Assembly: GCA_016929795.1 (NCBI GenBank)
Contig: JAFGIA010000391.1
Location: forward strand, 1 to 6,714
Origin: Anaerolineae bacterium
Lineage (GTDB): Bacteria; Chloroflexota; Anaerolineae; JAAYZQ01
Reading direction: 5' to 3'
Length of the DNA: 6,714 bases
Numbering within the stretch: the stretch's first letter is position 1; every line of letters begins with the position of its first letter. The notes beneath the pieces were generated by a model. It was given only the letters and a program-made list of their open reading frames with translations. It did no database searches and was not told where the DNA came from. This document shows, in pieces, positions 17 to 6,714 of the stretch. The translations under genes and the position numbers were made by a program.

Positions 17-51
17 TGAAATGTGAAACGTGAAACGTGATGCGTGAATCG
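17..51. repeat. 7-bp tandem repeat array A (TGAAACG type)
   Basis: Five consecutive 7-bp units read TGAAATG, TGAAACG, TGAAACG, TGATGCG and TGAATCG. The constant part is TGA at the start and G at the end, and the middle varies. This is a heptameric short tandem repeat of the kind reported in cyanobacteria and seen in other filamentous bacteria. The unit GTGATGC at 37-43 is the reverse complement of the GCATCAC unit of array B. Confidence 0.85.
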
Positions 52-128: not shown

Positions 129-1403
129 ATGAACAGGAGGAACTGCACGGTCGTCATCGTCGCCACCCTTGACACCAAAGGGGAGGAGGCCGCCTACGTT
201 CGCGACCACGTGGCTGCCTGGGGAGTGGATACGATCCTGATCGACCCCGGCATCCTGCCGGCGCCGGCGGTTGAGGCCGACGTCAGTCGCGAAAGGGTCG
301 CCGAGGCGGCGGGTACCACGCTGGAAGCGTTGTTGGCGCGGGATGACAAGGCGCGCGCCATCGCCACCCAGACCGAGGGGCTGATCCGCATCGTCCTCGA
401 TCTGCACCAGGCCGGGCGGCTGCAGGGCATCGTCGGGCTGGGCGGCGGGCAGGGGACATCCATCGGCACGGCGGCGATGCGCGCGTTACCCATCGGCGTG
501 CCCAAGTTGATGCTGTCCACCGTGGCCAGCGGCAATTTCCAGTTCGGCCCCTACGTCGGCACCAAGGACCTGTGCATGATGCACTCCATCACCGACGTGC
601 TGGGCCTGAACGCCATCAGCCGGCCCATCCTGCGCAACGCGGCCAACGCCATCGCCGGCATGGCCCTCCACTACGAGCCCGAGGCGGAATCCGCCACGCC
701 CACCATCGCGATCACCATGCTGGGCATCACCACCCCCTGCGTGATGCGCATCAAGGCCACGCTGGAGCGCCAGGGCTACGACGTAGTGCCCTTTCACGCC
801 AACGGCACCAGCGGCCCGGCCATGGAGGGGCTGATCGAACAGGGTAAGTTCGTCGGCGTCATCGATCTGAGCACCCACGAGGTAATCGACCAGCAGCACG
901 GCGGCCTGGCCGGTGCGCCGCGTCGCCTGGAGGCGCTAGCCCGCACGGCCATCCCCGCCGTGGTGTCGGTGGGCGGCAGCGACTATCTCCTTTTTGAGAG
1001 TGTACAGAAGGCACCGGAAAAGTACCGCACCCGCGCTCACATGGTCCACAACGCGCAGATGACCTGCTTTGCGCCTACCCCCGATGAGATGGTCGCCGCC
1101 GCCCGGGAGATGATCGAGCGCTTGAATCGCGCCCTGGGGCCGGTGATCGTCGTTCTGCCTTCTCGCGGCTTCTCCCGGCCCAACCGGGAAGGCGATGGTC
1201 TCTACGTACCCGAGGGCAACCGAGCGGTCATTGCCGAATTCGAGGCCGCGCTGCGCCCCGAGATCCCCGTCGTCGTGGTCGACCTGCACCTCAACGACCC
1301 ACCCTTCGCCGACCTGGTGGCCGGCGCCATGGAGCGGCTGCTGCAGGGCGAGGCACCCCACACCGTCGCGGCCCGAGTTCATAACGGTGGATCGTCCGGA
1401 TGA
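129..1403 (+). CDS. Tm-1-like ATP-binding domain (UPF0261) protein, copy 1
   Basis: The 424-aa product is a full-length member of the UPF0261/Tm-1-like family, named after the N-terminal domain of the tomato Tm-1 resistance protein. Visible family motifs are TLDTKGEE (residues 13-20), the glycine-rich GLGGGQGT (103-110), GPYVGTKD (140-147), HANGTSGPAME (223-233) and C-terminal DLHLNDPPFA (385-394). The glycine-rich segment fits nucleotide or phosphate binding. No signal peptide or membrane segment is seen, so it is probably cytosolic. The reaction of bacterial members is not established to my knowledge. I chose 129 because homology begins a few residues later, it has a ribosome-binding site, and the extension from 66 would be encoded by a 7-bp repeat array. 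Its stop overlaps the gene 2 start (ATGA at 1400-1403). It is a clear paralogue of gene 4, with about half the residues identical by eye over the N-terminal half. Confidence 0.9.
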   Translation: MNRRNCTVVIVATLDTKGEEAAYVRDHVAAWGVDTILIDPGILPAPAVEADVSRERVAEAAGTTLEALLARDDKARAIATQTEGLIRIVLDLHQAGRLQGIVGLGGGQGTSIGTAAMRALPIGVPKLMLSTVASGNFQFGPYVGTKDLCMMHSITDVLGLNAISRPILRNAANAIAGMALHYEPEAESATPTIAITMLGITTPCVMRIKATLERQGYDVVPFHANGTSGPAMEGLIEQGKFVGVIDLSTHEVIDQQHGGLAGAPRRLEALARTAIPAVVSVGGSDYLLFESVQKAPEKYRTRAHMVHNAQMTCFAPTPDEMVAAAREMIERLNRALGPVIVVLPSRGFSRPNREGDGLYVPEGNRAVIAEFEAALRPEIPVVVVDLHLNDPPFADLVAGAMERLLQGEAPHTVAARVHNGGSSG

Positions 1404-2575
1404 GCAGTTCGGGTTACCGATTCCCGGTTACCGATTCCCGGATTCCCCGCTCGCCGGACTTTCAGCGGGTTCGCCGGGCCATGCTCCGCGATGGCGAGGG
1501 TGACCGGGTGCCACTCTTTGAGATGTCGATCCACAGCCGGCACAAGGCGGCTATTCTGGCGCGCCCGGTGCAAAGCCTGCGGGACGAAGTGGATTTTTGG
1601 CGAGTAGCCGGCTACGATTTCGTCTCGATCCGGGCAGGGGTGCGGCCGGTGGTGCGGGGTTACCACCCGGCGGTCAGGGAGTGGCGGGCAGCGCGTGGCC
1701 AGGCACGCGAGGCGGGCGGTTGGGTCGCCGAGGATGCTGCCCTTATCCAGGACCGGCGCGATTTCGAGACCTTTCCCTGGCCGCGACCGGAGGAACTGGG
1801 CGGCTACCCCGACTATGAGGACCTGGACGGCTACCTGGCGGCGCTGGCCGGCCTGCTGCCCGCAGGGTTGAAGCTGCTGGTCCAGCTCGGCTATGTGTTC
1901 ATGGGCGCCTGGCAGATCCTGGGCTTTGAGAACTACTGTCTCAAGCTGGCCGACGACCCCGACCTGGTCCGCGATCTGCACGGTTGGCTGGGGGCGAGCC
2001 AGCTCGCGGTACTCGAGATGTTGCTGCAGCACGAGTGCGTGGGCACCGTGTGGCTGCCCGATGACCTGTGCTACAACAGTGGCCCGGTGGTGGCGCCCGG
2101 GGTCTATCGCCGCTACGTCTATCCCTGGTACGTCAGGATCGTAGAGCGCTGTCATCAGGCGGACGTGCCGGTGGGCCTGCACAGCGACGGCGACCTGACG
2201 CGCCTGCTGCCCGATCTGGTAGATTGTGGCTTTGACGCCGTCCACCCCTTCGAGCCGCCGATGAACGACATCGTCGCCGTCAAGCGGCAGTGGGGCGACC
2301 GCATCGCCGTTGCGGGCGGCATCGACCTGAAAAAGACGCTGTGCCACGGCACGCCCGCCGACGTCGAGGCCGAGGTGCAGAGGATGGCTGCCGCCCTGGC
2401 GCCCGGCGGCGGCTGGCTGCTCGGTTCCAGCAACTCGATCCCCGACTTTGTGCCGGTGGAGAACTACCAGGTGCTGTTAGCTGCGGGATTGCAATACGGC
2501 GATTACAAACGCCAAACTGCCCAATATCCAATAGCCAATACCCAATCTCCCGTCACGCAGGAGGAAAGGCCATGA
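1400..2575 (+). CDS. UroD-superfamily protein 1 (non-haem; decarboxylase or methyltransferase-like)
   Basis: The 391-aa product has the uroporphyrinogen decarboxylase (PF01208) TIM-barrel pattern: DRVPLFE (residues 35-41), a FPWPRPEEL stretch (125-133), Y-R-R-Y near 236-239, HSDGDL (261-266) and AGGIDL (305-310) followed by GTPADVEAEV. The N-terminal arginine-rich motif of true haem UroD (consensus W-x-M-R-Q-A-G-R) is absent and no haem genes are nearby, so I do not call it hemE. The motif that is HxCG in metal-dependent methyltransferase relatives reads HSDG here, so a cysteine-bound zinc is unlikely at this site. The start is the ATG in the ATGA overlap with gene 1. Its Shine-Dalgarno is weak (GGTGGA at 1386-1391), suggesting translational coupling. 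The next in-frame ATG, at 1481, would remove conserved sequence. Residues 5-16 and about 371-383 are encoded by 7-bp repeats and are probably dispensable tails. The substrate is unknown. Confidence 0.88.
   Translation: MSSSGYRFPVTDSRIPRSPDFQRVRRAMLRDGEGDRVPLFEMSIHSRHKAAILARPVQSLRDEVDFWRVAGYDFVSIRAGVRPVVRGYHPAVREWRAARGQAREAGGWVAEDAALIQDRRDFETFPWPRPEELGGYPDYEDLDGYLAALAGLLPAGLKLLVQLGYVFMGAWQILGFENYCLKLADDPDLVRDLHGWLGASQLAVLEMLLQHECVGTVWLPDDLCYNSGPVVAPGVYRRYVYPWYVRIVERCHQADVPVGLHSDGDLTRLLPDLVDCGFDAVHPFEPPMNDIVAVKRQWGDRIAVAGGIDLKKTLCHGTPADVEAEVQRMAAALAPGGGWLLGSSNSIPDFVPVENYQVLLAAGLQYGDYKRQTAQYPIANTQSPVTQEERP
1412..1446. repeat. 7-bp tandem repeat array C within the 5' end of gene 2
   Basis: Five 7-bp units read GGTTACC, GATTCCC, GGTTACC, GATTCCC and GGATTCC. 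The first four form two perfect 14-bp units (1412-1425 and 1426-1439), with identity continuing to 1441. The array lies 12 nt after the gene 2 ATG and is translated as residues 5-16. Five heptamers make 35 nt, which is not a multiple of three, so gain or loss of one or two units would shift the gene 2 frame. Confidence 0.88.
2512..2546. repeat. 7-bp tandem repeat array D within the 3' end of gene 2
   Basis: Five 7-bp units read CCAAACT, GCCCAAT, ATCCAAT, AGCCAAT and ACCCAAT; the last four have CCAAT at a strict 7-bp spacing. The array encodes roughly residues 371-383 of gene 2 and ends 12 nt before the strong Shine-Dalgarno of gene 3. Its local base composition is clearly richer in A+T than the surrounding coding sequence, consistent with inserted or expanded repeat DNA. 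Confidence 0.87.
2559..2564 (+). promoter_or_regulatory. Strong Shine-Dalgarno of gene 3
   Basis: AGGAGG lies 7 nt before the ATG at 2572, an ideal spacing. It fixes the start of the aldolase gene and excludes the longer reading frame that opens at 2290 inside gene 2. Confidence 0.85.
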
Positions 2576-3411
2576 CCCTGGGTAAAGAGATCCGTCTGCA
2601 AATGCTGAAAAACCGGGCGTCGGGCCGCATCCTGACCGTGGCCGTGGATCACGCTCCCAGCTATGGCGTGCTGTCCGGCCTGGAGAGGATCCAGCAGGTC
2701 GTCGACCGGGTGGCGAGCGCGGGTCCCGATGCCTTGCTGCTGATGAAAGGCACCGCCGCGCGCTGCTTCCGGCCCTATGCCGGGCGGGTGGCCCTCATCC
2801 TGAAATCGTCCAGCCTTTCGCCCTTCCACCTCCAGCACGACGTGTGGGTCAGTCCCGTGGAAGACGCGGTGCGGCTGGGCGCGGACGCCATTGCCATGGC
2901 GCTGACGGTGGGCAGCCCAGATCAAGCGGCTCTGCTGGCCAACCTCGCCGCCCTGGTCCGCGACGCGGAGCGGGCCGGCATGCCCATCGTCGTCCATGCG
3001 TACCCCAACGGCGAGCTAGTCCCACCCGGAGAGGTCTATACAGCCGAGCGGGTGGGTTATGCCTCGCGGCTGGCCATGGAGCTAGGCGTCGACATCGTCA
3101 AGACTTTTTACACCGGCTCGGCCGACAGCTTTCATCGGGTGGTCGAGATGACGGCCCCGGCGCTGGTAGTGGCTGCCGGCGGCCCGCGCCTGGAGACCGA
3201 CGCCGACGTCGTGCGCATGGCCCACAGTGTGGTGCAGGCCGGCGCGGCCGGTCTCACCTTTGGGCGCAACATCTGGCAGAGTGCCGACCCTGCCTCGCTC
3301 ATCCACGCCCTCAAGCACGTTCTGCACGAAAACGGCACGGTTGACGACGCACTGGCCCTGTTGGAGAGACGATCCGCCCAGCTCGATGACTTGCACATCA
3401 AGCGGGAATAA
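2572..3411 (+). CDS. Class I aldolase, DhnA/LsrF (DeoC/LacD) family
   Basis: The 279-aa product matches the usual length of the archaeal-type class I fructose-bisphosphate aldolase and LsrF thiolase family, a cytosolic TIM barrel forming a Schiff base with keto substrates. Visible landmarks are AVDHAPSYG (residues 24-32, where FBP aldolases usually have DHG), LLLMKG (55-60), VHAYPNGE (141-148), the Schiff-base motif DIVKTFYTG with K177 (174-182), AAGGPR (201-206) and the phosphate-loop-like GRNIWQ (231-236). The catalytic lysine and phosphate-binding signatures imply retro-aldol or acyl cleavage of a phosphorylated keto compound. The Ala after DH and the neighbours argue against ordinary glycolytic FBP aldolase, but this cannot be settled from sequence alone. 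The start is set by a strong Shine-Dalgarno and an ATGA overlap with gene 2; an in-frame opening to 2290 is only out-of-frame reading of gene 2. Confidence 0.88.
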   Translation: MTLGKEIRLQMLKNRASGRILTVAVDHAPSYGVLSGLERIQQVVDRVASAGPDALLLMKGTAARCFRPYAGRVALILKSSSLSPFHLQHDVWVSPVEDAVRLGADAIAMALTVGSPDQAALLANLAALVRDAERAGMPIVVHAYPNGELVPPGEVYTAERVGYASRLAMELGVDIVKTFYTGSADSFHRVVEMTAPALVVAAGGPRLETDADVVRMAHSVVQAGAAGLTFGRNIWQSADPASLIHALKHVLHENGTVDDALALLERRSAQLDDLHIKRE

Positions 3412-3422
3412 GAGGTCAACGT

Positions 3423-4655
3423 ATGAATATCCTGGTTATCGGCACGCTCGACACCAAGGGCCCTGAGGTCGGCTACCTGCGCGACGAAGTGGCCCGGCGT
3501 GGCGGATCTCCGCTGGTCATCGACCCCGGCATTCTGGGCCAGCCGGCCATCGCCGGCGACGTCACGCGGCAGCAGGTGGCCCGCGCCGCCGGCGTCGAGT
3601 TGGCCGACCTGGTCGCCACGGGGGACCGGCAGCGCTGCCAGGCGGCCATGATCGAGGGGCTGGTGGCGGTCGTCACGCGGCTGCACGCCGAGGGCCGGGT
3701 GGCGGGTGTCGTCGGCGTCGGCGGCGCGCAGGGCACGGCCATGGCCACGGCCGCCATGCGCGCCCTGCCGGTGGGTCTGCCCAAGGTCATGGTTTCGACC
3801 GTGGCCTGCGGCCAGACCACCTTTGGCCCCTACGTCGGCACCAAGGACGTGACCATGATCCATTCCGTGGCCGACATCCTGGGGCTGAACCGGGTCACGC
3901 GCCGCATTCTGGGCCAGGCAGCGGCGGCCGTGGTGGGCATGGCAGCGGTCGAGGCGGTGGCCGCGGGTGACAGGGAACTGATCGCCATTACCCAGGCAGG
4001 GATCACCACGCCGGGGGTGATGGCCGTCAAGGAGCAGCTGGAGGGCCTGGGCTTTGAGGTGATCGCTTTCCACTGTAACGGCATCGGCGGCCAGGCGATG
4101 GAGGAGCTGGTGCTCGACGGCGTAGTCAGGGGCGTGGTGGACTATTCGCCCCACGAGATCACGGACCTGCTCTTTGGCGGGCAGATGCCGGCCATGCCCG
4201 GCCGGCTCGAAGCAGCGGGGCGGATGGGCATCCCCCACGTCGTGACGCCTGGCGCCACCGACATCCGGCTCCACGGCCGCCCCGAGGAGCTGCCGGCAGA
4301 GCTGCGGGCACGAGCCTGCGTGCAGCACACGCCCACCCACACCCACGTGCGCAGCAGCGCCGAGGAGATGGCGGCTGTGGCGCGCCACATCGCCGCGCGG
4401 CTCAACGCCGGCATCGGCCCCCGGGCGGTGATGATTCCCCTGCAGGGCTACTCGATGCTCAACCGGCGGGGCCAGGTGCTGTATGACGAGGCGGCTAACA
4501 GGGCGTTCCTCGAGGCCGCGCGGGAAGCGCTGGCGCCCGAGGCCTGCCTCACCGCAGGAGAGGTCGAGCTGATCGAGGTCAACGCCCACATCAACGACCG
4601 CGCCTTTGCGGACGCCGTGGTCGACACCTTCCTCCGCTTACAAAGCGAAGGATAG
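3423..4655 (+). CDS. Tm-1-like ATP-binding domain (UPF0261) protein, copy 2
   Basis: The 410-aa product is a second full-length UPF0261 protein, paralogous to gene 1. Matching motifs are GTLDTKG (residues 7-13), VIDPGIL (32-38), GVGGAQGT (98-105), GPYVGTKD (135-142), HCNGIGGQAME (217-227) and HINDRAFA (389-396). It differs from gene 1 in the glycine-rich loop (GGAQ for GGGQ), in the NGIGGQ segment (NGTSGP in gene 1) and in the middle to C-terminal region, suggesting a different substrate or role. No signal peptide or membrane helix is seen. It begins 11 nt after the gene 3 stop, with GAGG at 3412-3415 placed 7 nt before the ATG. It sits directly before a UroD-like gene, repeating the gene 1/gene 2 arrangement. 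Two copies in one operon could form a heteromer or act on successive intermediates, but this is speculation. Confidence 0.9.
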   Translation: MNILVIGTLDTKGPEVGYLRDEVARRGGSPLVIDPGILGQPAIAGDVTRQQVARAAGVELADLVATGDRQRCQAAMIEGLVAVVTRLHAEGRVAGVVGVGGAQGTAMATAAMRALPVGLPKVMVSTVACGQTTFGPYVGTKDVTMIHSVADILGLNRVTRRILGQAAAAVVGMAAVEAVAAGDRELIAITQAGITTPGVMAVKEQLEGLGFEVIAFHCNGIGGQAMEELVLDGVVRGVVDYSPHEITDLLFGGQMPAMPGRLEAAGRMGIPHVVTPGATDIRLHGRPEELPAELRARACVQHTPTHTHVRSSAEEMAAVARHIAARLNAGIGPRAVMIPLQGYSMLNRRGQVLYDEAANRAFLEAAREALAPEACLTAGEVELIEVNAHINDRAFADAVVDTFLRLQSEG

Positions 4656-4658
4656 GAG
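4655..4658 (+). promoter_or_regulatory. Shine-Dalgarno of gene 5
   Basis: GGAG overlaps the last base of the gene 4 stop codon and lies 6 nt before the ATG at 4665. It favours 4665 over the second in-frame ATG at 4677, which has no comparable site at a good distance. Confidence 0.6.
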
Positions 4659-4664
4659 ATCTGC

Positions 4665-5825
4665 ATGACAGGCAGCATGACACCCAGGGAGCGGGTGCTG
4701 GCCGCGCTGGCCCATCGCCAGCCGGATCGGGTGCCCATCGACGTGGGCGGGACGTCGTTCAGCACGGTCATCGGCCAGGCCTACGAGCGGCTCAAGGCCC
4801 ACCTGGGGATTGATGCCGAGACGCGCTACATGAAGCGCAAATCGCGCAGCGCCCTGCTCGACGAGCGGGTCGCCCGGCGGCTCCACGCCGACGTTCGCCC
4901 GCTGCTGCCCGGCGCGCCTGACGGCTGGCACGACGTCCTCCTCGACGACAGCTCTTTCCGCGACGAGTTTGGTATAGTCTGGCGCAAGGCGGGTGATGGG
5001 CACTATGCCCCGACAGGCAACCCGCTCGGCGCCGCGACATTGGCCGGCCTCGACGCCTTCCCCTGGCCCGACCCGCTCGATCCAGGGCGCACCCGGGGCC
5101 TGCGGGAGGAGGCCCGGCGGCTGCATGAGGGAACGGACTATGCCGTGGCTCTCTCCCTGCCGGTGGGGTTCGTGCACCTCAGCCAGTATCTGCGCGGCTA
5201 CGAGCAGTGGCTGATGGATATTGTGCTCCACCCCGCCTTTCTCGACGCCCTGATGGACCGCACCCTCGAGTGGTGGCTGGCGTTGGCCGGTGCCGTCCTG
5301 GACGAGGTGGGGCCGTACGTGGACGTCGTTGCCTTTGGCGATGACGTGGCCTTTCACGACCGGCCCATGGTCGACCTGGGGCGTTATCGCCGGCTGTTCA
5401 AGCCACGCCACCGGAAGATGATCGACCTGCTCAAGAGCAAGTCGGAGGCCAGGGTGCTGTATCACTGCTGCGGGGCGGTGAAATCGCTCATTCCCGAGTT
5501 CATCGACATTGGCGTCGACGCCCTCAACCCGGTCCAAGTCTCGTCGGCGGGCATGGACGACACGGCCGCGCTCAAGGCCGAGTTCGGCGCCCACATCTGC
5601 TTCTGGGGCGCCATCGACACTCAGCGCCTCCTGCCCCTGGGCACACCGGACGAGGTCCGCGCCGAGGTGCGGCGGCGCATCGCCGACCTGGCCCCCGGCG
5701 GCGGCTTGATCGTGGCACCGGTGCACAATATCCAGGAAGACGTGCCGCCGGAGAGTATCGTGGCCATGGCTGATGCGGCATGGGAGATAGCCGGCACGGC
5801 CTCGAGTGCGAGGGAAAAAGGATGA
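4665..5825 (+). CDS. UroD-superfamily protein 2 (non-haem; HCCG motif)
   Basis: The 386-aa product has the PF01208 barrel: TPRERVLAAL (residues 6-15), DRVPIDVGGTS (21-31), FPWPDPLDP (132-140), YHCCGAV (266-272), WGAIDTQ (314-320), a GTPDEVRAEV stretch (326-335) and APVHNIQEDVPPE (351-363). The haem-type N-terminal arginine motif is missing. HCCG at 267-270 fits the H-x-C-G zinc motif of corrinoid-dependent methyltransferase relatives, but the expected late cysteine ligand is not obvious: the C-terminal loop carries H354 instead. No corrinoid-protein gene is in the window, so methyltransferase activity remains one option and decarboxylase or lyase activity another. The start at 4665 is favoured by its Shine-Dalgarno; a start at 4677 would give the more canonical family N-terminus. 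The stop overlaps the gene 6 start (ATGA, 5822-5825). It is only distantly similar to gene 2, so the two are not a recent duplication. Confidence 0.87.
   Translation: MTGSMTPRERVLAALAHRQPDRVPIDVGGTSFSTVIGQAYERLKAHLGIDAETRYMKRKSRSALLDERVARRLHADVRPLLPGAPDGWHDVLLDDSSFRDEFGIVWRKAGDGHYAPTGNPLGAATLAGLDAFPWPDPLDPGRTRGLREEARRLHEGTDYAVALSLPVGFVHLSQYLRGYEQWLMDIVLHPAFLDALMDRTLEWWLALAGAVLDEVGPYVDVVAFGDDVAFHDRPMVDLGRYRRLFKPRHRKMIDLLKSKSEARVLYHCCGAVKSLIPEFIDIGVDALNPVQVSSAGMDDTAALKAEFGAHICFWGAIDTQRLLPLGTPDEVRAEVRRRIADLAPGGGLIVAPVHNIQEDVPPESIVAMADAAWEIAGTASSAREKG
5810..5814 (+). promoter_or_regulatory. Shine-Dalgarno of gene 6
   Basis: GAGGG lies 7 nt before the ATG at 5822, inside the end of gene 5. A second in-frame ATG at 5828 would be 13 nt away, so 5822 is the better start. 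Confidence 0.55.
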
Positions 5826-6714
5826 CCATGACGGATGTGACGTTCGCGTACGCCGAAGAGCTGTTCGGCGGGGAATACGTGGTCGCCACCTACTACCTGG
5901 AGACCAACCCCGACGTGGACATTGTGGCTAAAGCCAGGTCGTTCGCGGTGGGCCAGAGCGTCGGCACCTGGACGCCGGTGCCGGGCGTCACCCGCGAGAT
6001 GCTGGAGCGCCACATGGGCCGCATCGTGGCCGTCTATGACGCGCCACCCGTCGAGCTGGCACCCGACCTGCCCGACAGGCGCGCCTTTTTCGTCCAGATT
6101 GCCTTCCCCGAGGTGAATTTTGGCCCCCAGTTCCCTATGCTGTTCACCACGCTGTTGGGCAACGACGTCTCGACGGCCACCCAGCTCAAGCTGGTGGATC
6201 TGACGCTGTCGCCGACTTTTGTGGCCGGCTTTGGCGGCCCCAAGTTCGGCATCGCCGGCGTGCGGGCGCATTTTGGCATCCCCGGTCGGCCCTTGCTGCT
6301 CAACATGATCAAGCCGTGCACCGGCTTTGGGCCGGAGGCGGGCGCCGCTTTTTTCGCCGAGTCGGCGCGGGGTGGAGTGGACATAATCAAGGATGACGAG
6401 CTGTTGGGCAATACCTCGTTCAGCGCCATGCTCGATCGGGTGCGGGCCTACACCCACGCCGCCGAGCAGGTCTACCAGGAGACCGGGCACCGGGCCGCCT
6501 ACTGCCCCAACGTCACCGACCGGGTCGAGAAAGTGGTAGACAATGCGCGACGGGCGGTAGAGCTGGGCGCAAGCATGATTATGATCAACGCCGTGGCGCT
6601 GGGGCTGGGTGTGGTGCAGGCGGTGGCCGAGGACCCGGCGGTCACGGTGCCGATCCTGAGCCACTATGCTGGCGCCGGCTCGCTGACCGAAAACCCGCGG
6701 GCCGGCATCAGCTC
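5822..6714 (+). CDS. RuBisCO-like protein (form IV type), large-subunit family, partial
   Basis: The reading frame stays open from 5822 to the window edge: 297 residues of a protein that usually has 400 or more. It shows the RuBisCO large-chain order: SVGTWTPV (residues 46-53), LLGNDVS (111-117), FGGPKFGI (137-144), GRPLLLNMIKPCTGF (155-169), GGVDIIKDDELL (184-195), GHRAAYCPN (222-230) and ILSHYAGAG (278-286). K164 corresponds to the first active-site lysine. K190, D192 and E193 match the carbamylated lysine and Mg2+ ligands. H281 fits the conserved histidine. The second lysine of the RuBisCO KPK motif is replaced (KPC) and the usual ESSTG segment is changed, so CO2 fixation is unlikely. RLPs carry out enolisation, isomerisation or decarboxylation of keto-sugar phosphates, for example MtnW and the 3-oxo-isoapionate-phosphate enzymes. 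The loop-6 lysine and C-terminal phosphate site lie beyond the edge. The substrate is unknown. Confidence 0.9.
   Translation, partial: MTMTDVTFAYAEELFGGEYVVATYYLETNPDVDIVAKARSFAVGQSVGTWTPVPGVTREMLERHMGRIVAVYDAPPVELAPDLPDRRAFFVQIAFPEVNFGPQFPMLFTTLLGNDVSTATQLKLVDLTLSPTFVAGFGGPKFGIAGVRAHFGIPGRPLLLNMIKPCTGFGPEAGAAFFAESARGGVDIIKDDELLGNTSFSAMLDRVRAYTHAAEQVYQETGHRAAYCPNVTDRVEKVVDNARRAVELGASMIMINAVALGLGVVQAVAEDPAVTVPILSHYAGAGSLTENPRAGIS

What the first reader, a model, noticed from the sequence alone, without database searches (positions are those of the whole stretch)
129..6714. Undescribed-looking operon: two UPF0261/UroD pairs, a class I aldolase and a RuBisCO-like protein
Six co-directional genes are packed with ATGA overlaps or gaps of about 10 nt. 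I do not recognise the set (UPF0261, UroD-like, DhnA/LsrF aldolase, UPF0261, UroD-like, RLP) as a described pathway. RLPs and class I aldolases both act on keto-sugar phosphates, so the operon plausibly degrades an unusual, perhaps branched or methylated, sugar or sugar acid. UPF0261 proteins lack a firm function, and this context would help assign one. The pathway is inference; the families and order are read from the sequence.
Basis: partly seen in the sequence, partly recalled or inferred. Interest (0 to 1): 0.75.

Follow-up and report, generated by a model that had tools for sequence, protein, structure and literature searches.

The report
RuBisCO-like sugar-acid operon with UPF0261 kinases
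A set of side-by-side bacterial genes, found in several related bacteria, probably breaks down an unusual sugar acid using a relative of the carbon-fixing enzyme RuBisCO, and it suggests that the poorly known UPF0261 proteins beside it are the kinases that feed it.

Summary
In detail: six co-directional genes, joined by ATGA overlaps or 9-11 nt gaps, encode UPF0261, UroD-like, DhnA-type aldolase, UPF0261, UroD-like and a RuBisCO-like protein (RLP). The core recurs in 5 Anaerolineae genomes. UPF0261 lies within six genes of a related RLP in 35 of 80 loci from several phyla, co-directional in 34 of 35. UPF0261 and FGGY kinase alternate there: 34 loci UPF0261 only, 30 FGGY only, 1 both, 15 neither; two swaps suffice on the RLP tree. 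Relatives of Saro_1862 (UPF0261 solved with acetovanillone) directly precede biotin-carboxylase and phosphatase genes in the 3 plasmid records opened (of 336 matched), the place of a kinase. Best reading: UPF0261 is an ATP-dependent small-molecule kinase; U2 phosphorylates a sugar acid, the RLP cleaves it (probably decarboxylation), the aldolase splits the product. The RLP fails the MtnW and OiaX tests and lacks MtnW's catalytic lysine. Demethylation by the UroD-like proteins is not supported. Substrate, RLP reaction and UroD-like role stay open. Ten library searches showed no description of UPF0261 with RLP. It is a new variant of RLP-dependent sugar-acid catabolism.

The parts
129..1403 (+). 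U1: UPF0261 protein (two-domain, Tm-1/Saro_1862-like), proposed ATP-dependent kinase specific to this operon type
   Evidence: Pfam, AlphaFold model pLDDT 91 with Tm-1 and Saro_1862 as best folds; own clade in the UPF0261 tree
1400..2575 (+). D1: UroD-like TIM barrel with HSDG motif, role unknown, dispensable
   Evidence: PF01208; ortholog absent from L101, present in the other 4 genomes; short tandem repeats of 7 or 14 bases at both ends of the reading frame
2572..3411 (+). A: DhnA/MJ0400-type class I aldolase, proposed to split the sugar phosphate
   Evidence: PF01791; best solved relative MJ0400 2qjg, KT(S/F)YTG motif shared; present in 2 of 5 related genomes
3423..4655 (+). U2: UPF0261 protein, proposed kinase feeding the RLP
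   Evidence: Pfam; its clade is sister to the single UPF0261 next to the RLP in L003 (Bauldia) and L006 (Paenibacillus), support 98
4665..5825 (+). D2: UroD-like TIM barrel with HCCG motif, next to the RLP in all 5 related genomes, role unknown
5822..6714 (+). R: RuBisCO-like protein, N-terminal 297 aa, cut by the window end; proposed cleavage (decarboxylation) of a keto sugar-acid phosphate
   Evidence: PF00016/PF02788; metal-site Lys-Asp-Glu kept, MtnW Lys98 replaced by Asn114

Best explanation
This is a catabolic operon for a sugar acid or its lactone in an Anaerolineae-like bacterium. A UPF0261 protein (U2) uses ATP to phosphorylate a (3-keto) sugar acid. The RLP binds the phosphorylated acid at its metal-lysine site and cleaves it, most likely by decarboxylation through an enediolate, to a ketose phosphate, and the class I aldolase splits that into central metabolites. 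U1 is a second, operon-specific kinase. MBL lactonases, a dehydrogenase and BKACE, known from related genomes outside the window's reach, prepare and finish the substrate. Shown by computation: gene families, conserved operon core, alternation of UPF0261 with FGGY beside the RLP, metal-site residues, kinase-place context of other UPF0261 proteins. Inferred: kinase activity of U1 and U2, RLP reaction, substrate, roles of D1 and D2.
For: UPF0261 within six genes of the RLP in 35 of 80 loci, co-directional in 34 of 35. UPF0261 and FGGY alternate: 34 UPF0261 only, 30 FGGY only, 1 both, 15 neither; two state changes suffice on an 83-row RLP tree. DUF1537-kinase queries hit one of the 80 loci (L061, about 3.4 kb from the RLP on the other strand), and no PfkB or GHMP signature (from recall) was found within six genes. 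Saro_1862 (9mpy) was solved with acetovanillone; N. aromaticivorans starts acetovanillone catabolism with the single-component kinase MarK (passages of PMC13101465). Relatives of 9mpy lie directly before BCCP-BC-CT-HAD genes in L111, L112 and L113, the 3 records opened of 336 matched; the same four functions follow the kinase genes of the hpe operon, there with CT before BC (passages of PMC9618137). The annotated OiaX locus L114 has a similar parts list with a four-carbon acid sugar kinase, BKACE and an AHL-lactonase-family protein; its BKACE (28%, E 7e-24 or better) and lactonase (28%, E 3e-17) are homologs of those of L032. RLP-UPF0261 operons of three Erysipelotrichaceae genomes carry a UlaG-class lactonase (590-593 bits, cut-off 306), while the only PF00215 protein found in each genome is PyrF, so no UlaD was found (completeness of the genomes not told).
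Against: No activity is shown for any UPF0261 on a sugar acid. That Saro_1862 is MarK is my inference; the MarK paper is not held. Of the 15 loci with neither kinase, 4 reach at least 4.6 kb on both sides of the RLP (L007, L024, L047, L061). The RLP misses OiaX by score, has Asn where OiaX has Gly, and its near relative P0017 keeps a lysine where OiaX has none, so decarboxylation is by analogy. UlaG-like proteins of L032 and L101 fall below the UlaG cut-off (225 and 222 of 306). MBL proteins lie far below the lactonase cut-offs (88 of 375). Pathway genes outside the window are known only from relatives.
Confidence: 0.6

Rival explanations
1. The RLP is an MtnW-type enolase in a methionine-salvage-like route: a ketose-1-phosphate is dehydrated to a 2,3-diketo-1-phosphate and the RLP tautomerises it.
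For: MtnW models are the best NCBIfam hits; class II aldolase-family proteins, the family of MtnB, lie within nine genes of the RLP in 13 of 80 loci and a HAD-family phosphatase in 4 of 80.
Against: All scores lie under the MtnW cut-offs (window, partial, 228 of 409; full-length L006 342, L037 341, L021 401). The MtnW base Lys98 (recalled) is Asn114 here. The class II proteins tested fail the MtnB cut-off (87, 59 and 77 of 137). The window has no MtnB, MtnX or MtnD gene.
Confidence: 0.15
2. UPF0261 is not the kinase but an ATP-binding partner or regulator of a TIM-barrel enzyme (TBST or UroD-like), and the alternation with FGGY only marks two lineages.
For: UPF0261 goes with PEP_hydrolase/TBST in 21 of the 23 RLP loci that have TBST, co-evolves with it elsewhere and is fused to it in plants (passages of PMC5028733); in the window each UPF0261 is near a UroD-like barrel; swaps number only two.
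Against: UPF0261 stands without TBST or UroD-like neighbour in L003, L006 and the Erysipelotrichaceae loci, U1 stands without D1 in L101, and UPF0261 fills the kinase place in L111, L112 and L113.
Confidence: 0.15
3. The UroD-like proteins are MtaA/CmuA-type methyltransferases and the operon demethylates a methylated sugar.
For: MtaA/CmuA models are the best NCBIfam hits of D1 and D2; MtaA 4ay7/4ay8 is among the best folds of D2.
Against: Scores 48 and 57 of a cut-off of 235. Of the three recalled zinc ligands of MtaA, D2 keeps His and one Cys, D1 only His. The 5 genomes have PF02607 corrinoid-domain proteins but none on the contig of the operon. D1 is missing from L101.
Confidence: 0.05
4. 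The RLP is a true carboxylase (form III-like RuBisCO) and the operon fixes CO2 onto a sugar phosphate.
For: Metal-site Lys, Asp, Glu and a His are kept, and the residue at the MtnW Lys98 place is Asn, as at RuBisCO Asn123 (recalled).
Against: RuBisCO III score 128 of 497 (partial protein; full-length relatives 235-266). Laying the recalled RuBisCO motif AESSTGTW on the window row puts Gly at Glu60.
Confidence: 0.02

Closest known systems
OiaX locus (3-oxo-isoapionate-4-phosphate decarboxylase; Rhizobium plasmid, L114)
   Same: RLP with kinase, BKACE, AHL-lactonase-family protein and sugar ABC transporter nearby; kept metal-site Lys-Asp-Glu
   Different: Kinase annotated as four-carbon acid sugar kinase, not UPF0261; RLP 32-34% identical to P0017, window clade under the OiaX cut-off; no UroD-like or DhnA gene in the annotated stretch (the table is incomplete)
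Ula pathway (L-ascorbate-6-P lactonase UlaG, 3-keto-L-gulonate-6-P decarboxylase UlaD)
   Same: UlaG-class lactonase in related RLP-UPF0261 operons, UlaG-like in L032 and L101
   Different: No UlaD found in the three genomes tested; an RLP stands in the operon; ABC importer genes in place of the PTS (PTS recalled)
Hpe/Acv/MarK hydroxyphenylethanone pathway
   Same: UPF0261 relatives of Saro_1862, 35-37% identical to U1 and U2, in the kinase place
   Different: Followed by biotin carboxylase and HAD phosphatase genes, not by an RLP; HpeHI itself is another kinase family
Methionine salvage MtnW
   Same: Nearest solved structures and NCBIfam models
   Different: Lys98 replaced by Asn; no Mtn partners in the window

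Membership tests
UPF0261 family (PF06792/PF23189) | Both domains over the Pfam cut-off and the family fold | tested here: met
   for U1; Pfam only for U2
MarK-like kinase | ATP-dependent phosphorylation of a small molecule | not testable with these tools
   Homology 35-37% over nearly the full length, shared DTK and P-x-G-x-P-K positions; activity not shown
MtnW (DK-MTP-1-P enolase) | Score over the NCBIfam cut-off | tested here: not met
   228 of 409 for the partial window protein; three full-length relatives 341-401
MtnW (DK-MTP-1-P enolase) | Catalytic base Lys98 (recalled) | tested here: not met
   Asn114 in the window; Asn in 8 of the 10 rows, Lys in MtnW, Gly in OiaX. The search pattern itself asks for this Asn, so its constancy in the 80 loci is partly selected
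OiaX | Score over the NCBIfam cut-off | tested here: not met
   120 of 700 for the partial window protein; three full-length relatives 198-212
RuBisCO form I-III | Score over the NCBIfam cut-offs | tested here: not met
   140 of 438, 128 of 497 and 53 of 489 for the partial window protein; three full-length relatives also under the cut-offs. Metal site kept; Glu60 judged lost from a recalled motif only
MtaA/CmuA methyltransferase (D1, D2) | Score over cut-off and His-Cys-Cys zinc site (recalled) | tested here: not met
   48 and 57 of 235; incomplete ligands
Corrinoid-dependent demethylation system | Corrinoid-domain protein (PF02607) beside the operon | tested here: not met
   None on the operon contigs of 5 of 5 genomes; not testable for the window itself, whose contig ends
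UlaG lactonase (L037, L042, L060 operons) | Score over the UlaG cut-off | tested here: met
   590-593 against 306; L032 and L101 proteins 225 and 222, not met
Class I aldolase DhnA/MJ0400 type | PF01791 and the lysine of the KT-YTG motif | tested here: met
   the named NCBIfam cut-offs are not met, closest 234 of 241

The most novel reading that the evidence does not exclude
UPF0261 proteins are a widespread family of small-molecule kinases, and together with RuBisCO-like proteins they form a separate decarboxylating route for sugar-acid lactones, an ascorbate-like pathway in which an RLP has taken the place of UlaD and UPF0261 the place of the usual sugar kinase; UPF0261 was swapped for FGGY kinases at least twice.
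Probability: 0.3. Interest if true: 0.85.

Novelty: new variant of a known kind. Interest (0 to 1): 0.62.

Why it matters
It gives thousands of UPF0261 proteins (at least 5544 relatives of U1 at E <= 1e-20 among the 7998 candidates scored) a testable function, kinase for sugar acids or other small hydroxylated compounds, and gives an uncharacterised RLP clade a kinase partner. It would add another kinase family to RLP pathways and a case of an RLP replacing a decarboxylase of another superfamily.

Tried and rejected

The first simple ORF caller lost the RLP in several loci; the counts use the homology-guided caller. Neighbour counts use gene order within six genes or nine genes of the RLP, and contig ends cut several loci. 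L009, with UPF0261 on the other strand, was kept in the 35. Only representatives of neighbour families and chosen single genes were scanned with Pfam or NCBIfam, not every neighbour, so a kinase of a family that I did not query could be missed. ROK and glycerate-kinase motifs were written into the script but not run.

Full report
Observation. The window holds six co-directional genes: U1 129-1403, D1 1400-2575, A 2572-3411, U2 3423-4655, D2 4665-5825 and R 5822-6712 (open), with ATGA overlaps at three junctions and gaps of 11 and 9 nt at the other two. Pfam gives UPF0261, URO-D, DeoC/LacD aldolase, UPF0261, URO-D and RuBisCO large. No whole genome is held for the window. Among the closest RLP relatives those with an organism name are from Chloroflexota and Anaerolineae.

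Recurrence. A search of 396 genomes of the class of L032's genome gave 19 with an RLP at E <= 1e-90; five of these are close (69-100% identity to the query P0017): G001, G002, G003, G019 and G046. All 5 of 5 carry U1, U2, D2 and the RLP in this order; D1 is in 4 of 5 and absent from L101 (G019); the aldolase is in 2 of 5 (G001 and G019) and in the window. Upstream lie a UTRA-domain regulator gene and an MBL-fold hydrolase gene whose best models, far below their cut-offs, are AHL lactonases and pyridoxolactonase; downstream in G001 and G019 lie a 3-hydroxyacyl-CoA-dehydrogenase-family gene, BKACE, IlvD and a UlaG-like gene. In a draw of 400 genomes of the phylum, partly overlapping, only G001 matched at E <= 1e-130, so this operon type is rare.

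Wider context. UPF0261 lies within six genes of the RLP in 35 of 80, among them Chloroflexota, Bacillota, a Bauldia (Pseudomonadota) and a Caldisericota genome; it is co-directional with no opposite gene between in 34 of 35. FGGY kinases lie there in 31 of 80. One locus (L011) has both; 15 have neither. Of these 15, L007, L024, L047 and L061 reach at least 4.6 kb on both sides of the RLP; the others are cut closer on at least one side. Ten of the 15 genomes have UPF0261 somewhere. On the RLP tree of 83 rows (80 loci, two further Anaerolineae loci and the window, which I labelled UPF0261) the UPF0261/FGGY state needs two changes (no shuffle control was run, and the 'both' and 'neither' rows were left out). 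Two DUF1537-kinase queries hit one of the 80 loci (L061, other strand, 3.4 kb off), and no PfkB or GHMP motif was found within six genes in any locus (motifs from recall).

UPF0261 as kinase. The AlphaFold model of U1 (pLDDT 91) matches Tm-1 and 9mpy, described as Saro_1862 with bound acetovanillone. Passages of PMC13101465 say that N. aromaticivorans starts acetovanillone catabolism with MarK, a single-component kinase. That MarK is Saro_1862 is my inference; the paper is not held. As an independent test I looked at close relatives of 9mpy on plasmids (336 records with a match, I opened 3): in Sphingobium yanoikuyae L111, Novosphingobium humi L112 and Pseudomonas putida L113 the UPF0261 gene is directly followed by genes for BCCP, biotin carboxylase, a carboxyltransferase-like protein and a HAD phosphatase (L112 bears no annotation and was read by tblastn). 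In the hpe operon the same four functions, with the last two carboxylase genes in the other order, follow the kinase genes hpeHI (passages of PMC9618137). U1 and U2 are 37% and 35% identical to the L111 protein over about 400 residues and share the DTK, GG, P-x-G-x-P-K, D147, N161, T201, R266 and D285 positions.

U2 and the RLP. In the UPF0261 tree the U2 clade is sister (support 98) to the single UPF0261 of the RLP loci L003 (Bauldia) and L006 (Paenibacillus), while U1 forms its own clade; the tool warns of long branches that meet, so deeper joins are unsure. U2 is the better candidate for the kinase that feeds the RLP.

The RLP. It scores below the cut-offs of the NCBIfam models it matched, MtnW and OiaX included; the window copy is partial, but the three full-length relatives scanned fail too. 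Against 2oek the metal-site Lys173, Asp175 and Glu176, plus Lys147 and His264, are kept, and Lys98 is replaced by Asn114 (residue roles recalled). Annotated OiaX has Gly at that place and Gln where P0017 and MtnW share a later lysine, a part that the window copy does not reach and that L006 and L039 do not keep.

Pathway. The OiaX locus L114 has an RLP, a four-carbon acid sugar kinase, BKACE, an AHL-lactonase-family protein and a sugar ABC transporter; its BKACE and lactonase are homologs of those of L032 at about 28% identity. Three Erysipelotrichaceae genomes (G006, G746, G747) have ABC genes, UlaG-class lactonase, esterase-like protein, class II aldolase, MBL, UPF0261 and RLP in one run, and the only OMP-decarboxylase-family protein found in each is PyrF. 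Hence I infer lactone to acid, phosphorylation by UPF0261, RLP cleavage with loss of CO2, aldol cleavage. TIM- and RpiB-like genes near other RLPs (13 and 8 of 80) would suit a tetrulose phosphate product; one RpiB-like protein scores 121 of 240 on the D-erythrulose-4-phosphate isomerase model and over the general RpiB cut-off. The order of the steps and the substrate are inference.

UroD-like proteins. D2 has the UroD/MtaA fold but neither D1 nor D2 reaches MtaA/CmuA scores, the MtaA zinc site (recalled) is incomplete and the operon contigs carry no PF02607 hit, though each genome has such proteins elsewhere. Their role is unknown; D2's constant place before the RLP suggests that it acts on the same intermediate.

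Literature. Ten library searches listed no paper on UPF0261 with RLP. Seen: PMC5028733 (passages), PMC12167813 (abstract, passages), PMC9618137 (passages), PMC13101465 (passages), PMC11837543 and PMC12607616 (passages; no match for UPF or Tm-1), PMC12710314 and PMC12619356 (passages by other terms; no locus tag for MarK). Carter et al. 2018 on apionate pathways is recalled, not read.

Noticed in passing
window 17-48, 68-117, 1412-1441, 2521-2550: Short tandem repeats (units of 7 or 14 bases) lie before U1 and at both ends of D1; D1 is also the gene missing in L101, so it may have been gained or lost at these repeats.
   Followed up: partly
L012, L014-L016, L019-L021, L030, L031, L035, L036, L043: Another RLP operon type: RLP, PEP_hydrolase/TBST, ComB-like phosphatase, UPF0261, second TBST; its pathway is unknown.
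   Followed up: no
L105, L106: Class II aldolase gene with two tandem UPF0261 genes and no RLP beside them in two Chloroflexota genomes.
   Followed up: no
L104:3709-7380: Third UPF0261 of G001, next to AAA ATPase and CoxE-like VWA genes, about 7 kb from the operon.
   Followed up: no
L018:11408-13977: RLP-UPF0261 locus followed by amidohydrolase and S-adenosylhomocysteine hydrolase genes.
   Followed up: no
L111:3992-4879: BKACE gene directly before the UPF0261-carboxylase cluster of a Sphingobium plasmid, a possible last step of acetophenone-type catabolism.
   Followed up: no
L009:9962-12754: UPF0261 and TBST next to the RLP but on the opposite strand.
   Followed up: no
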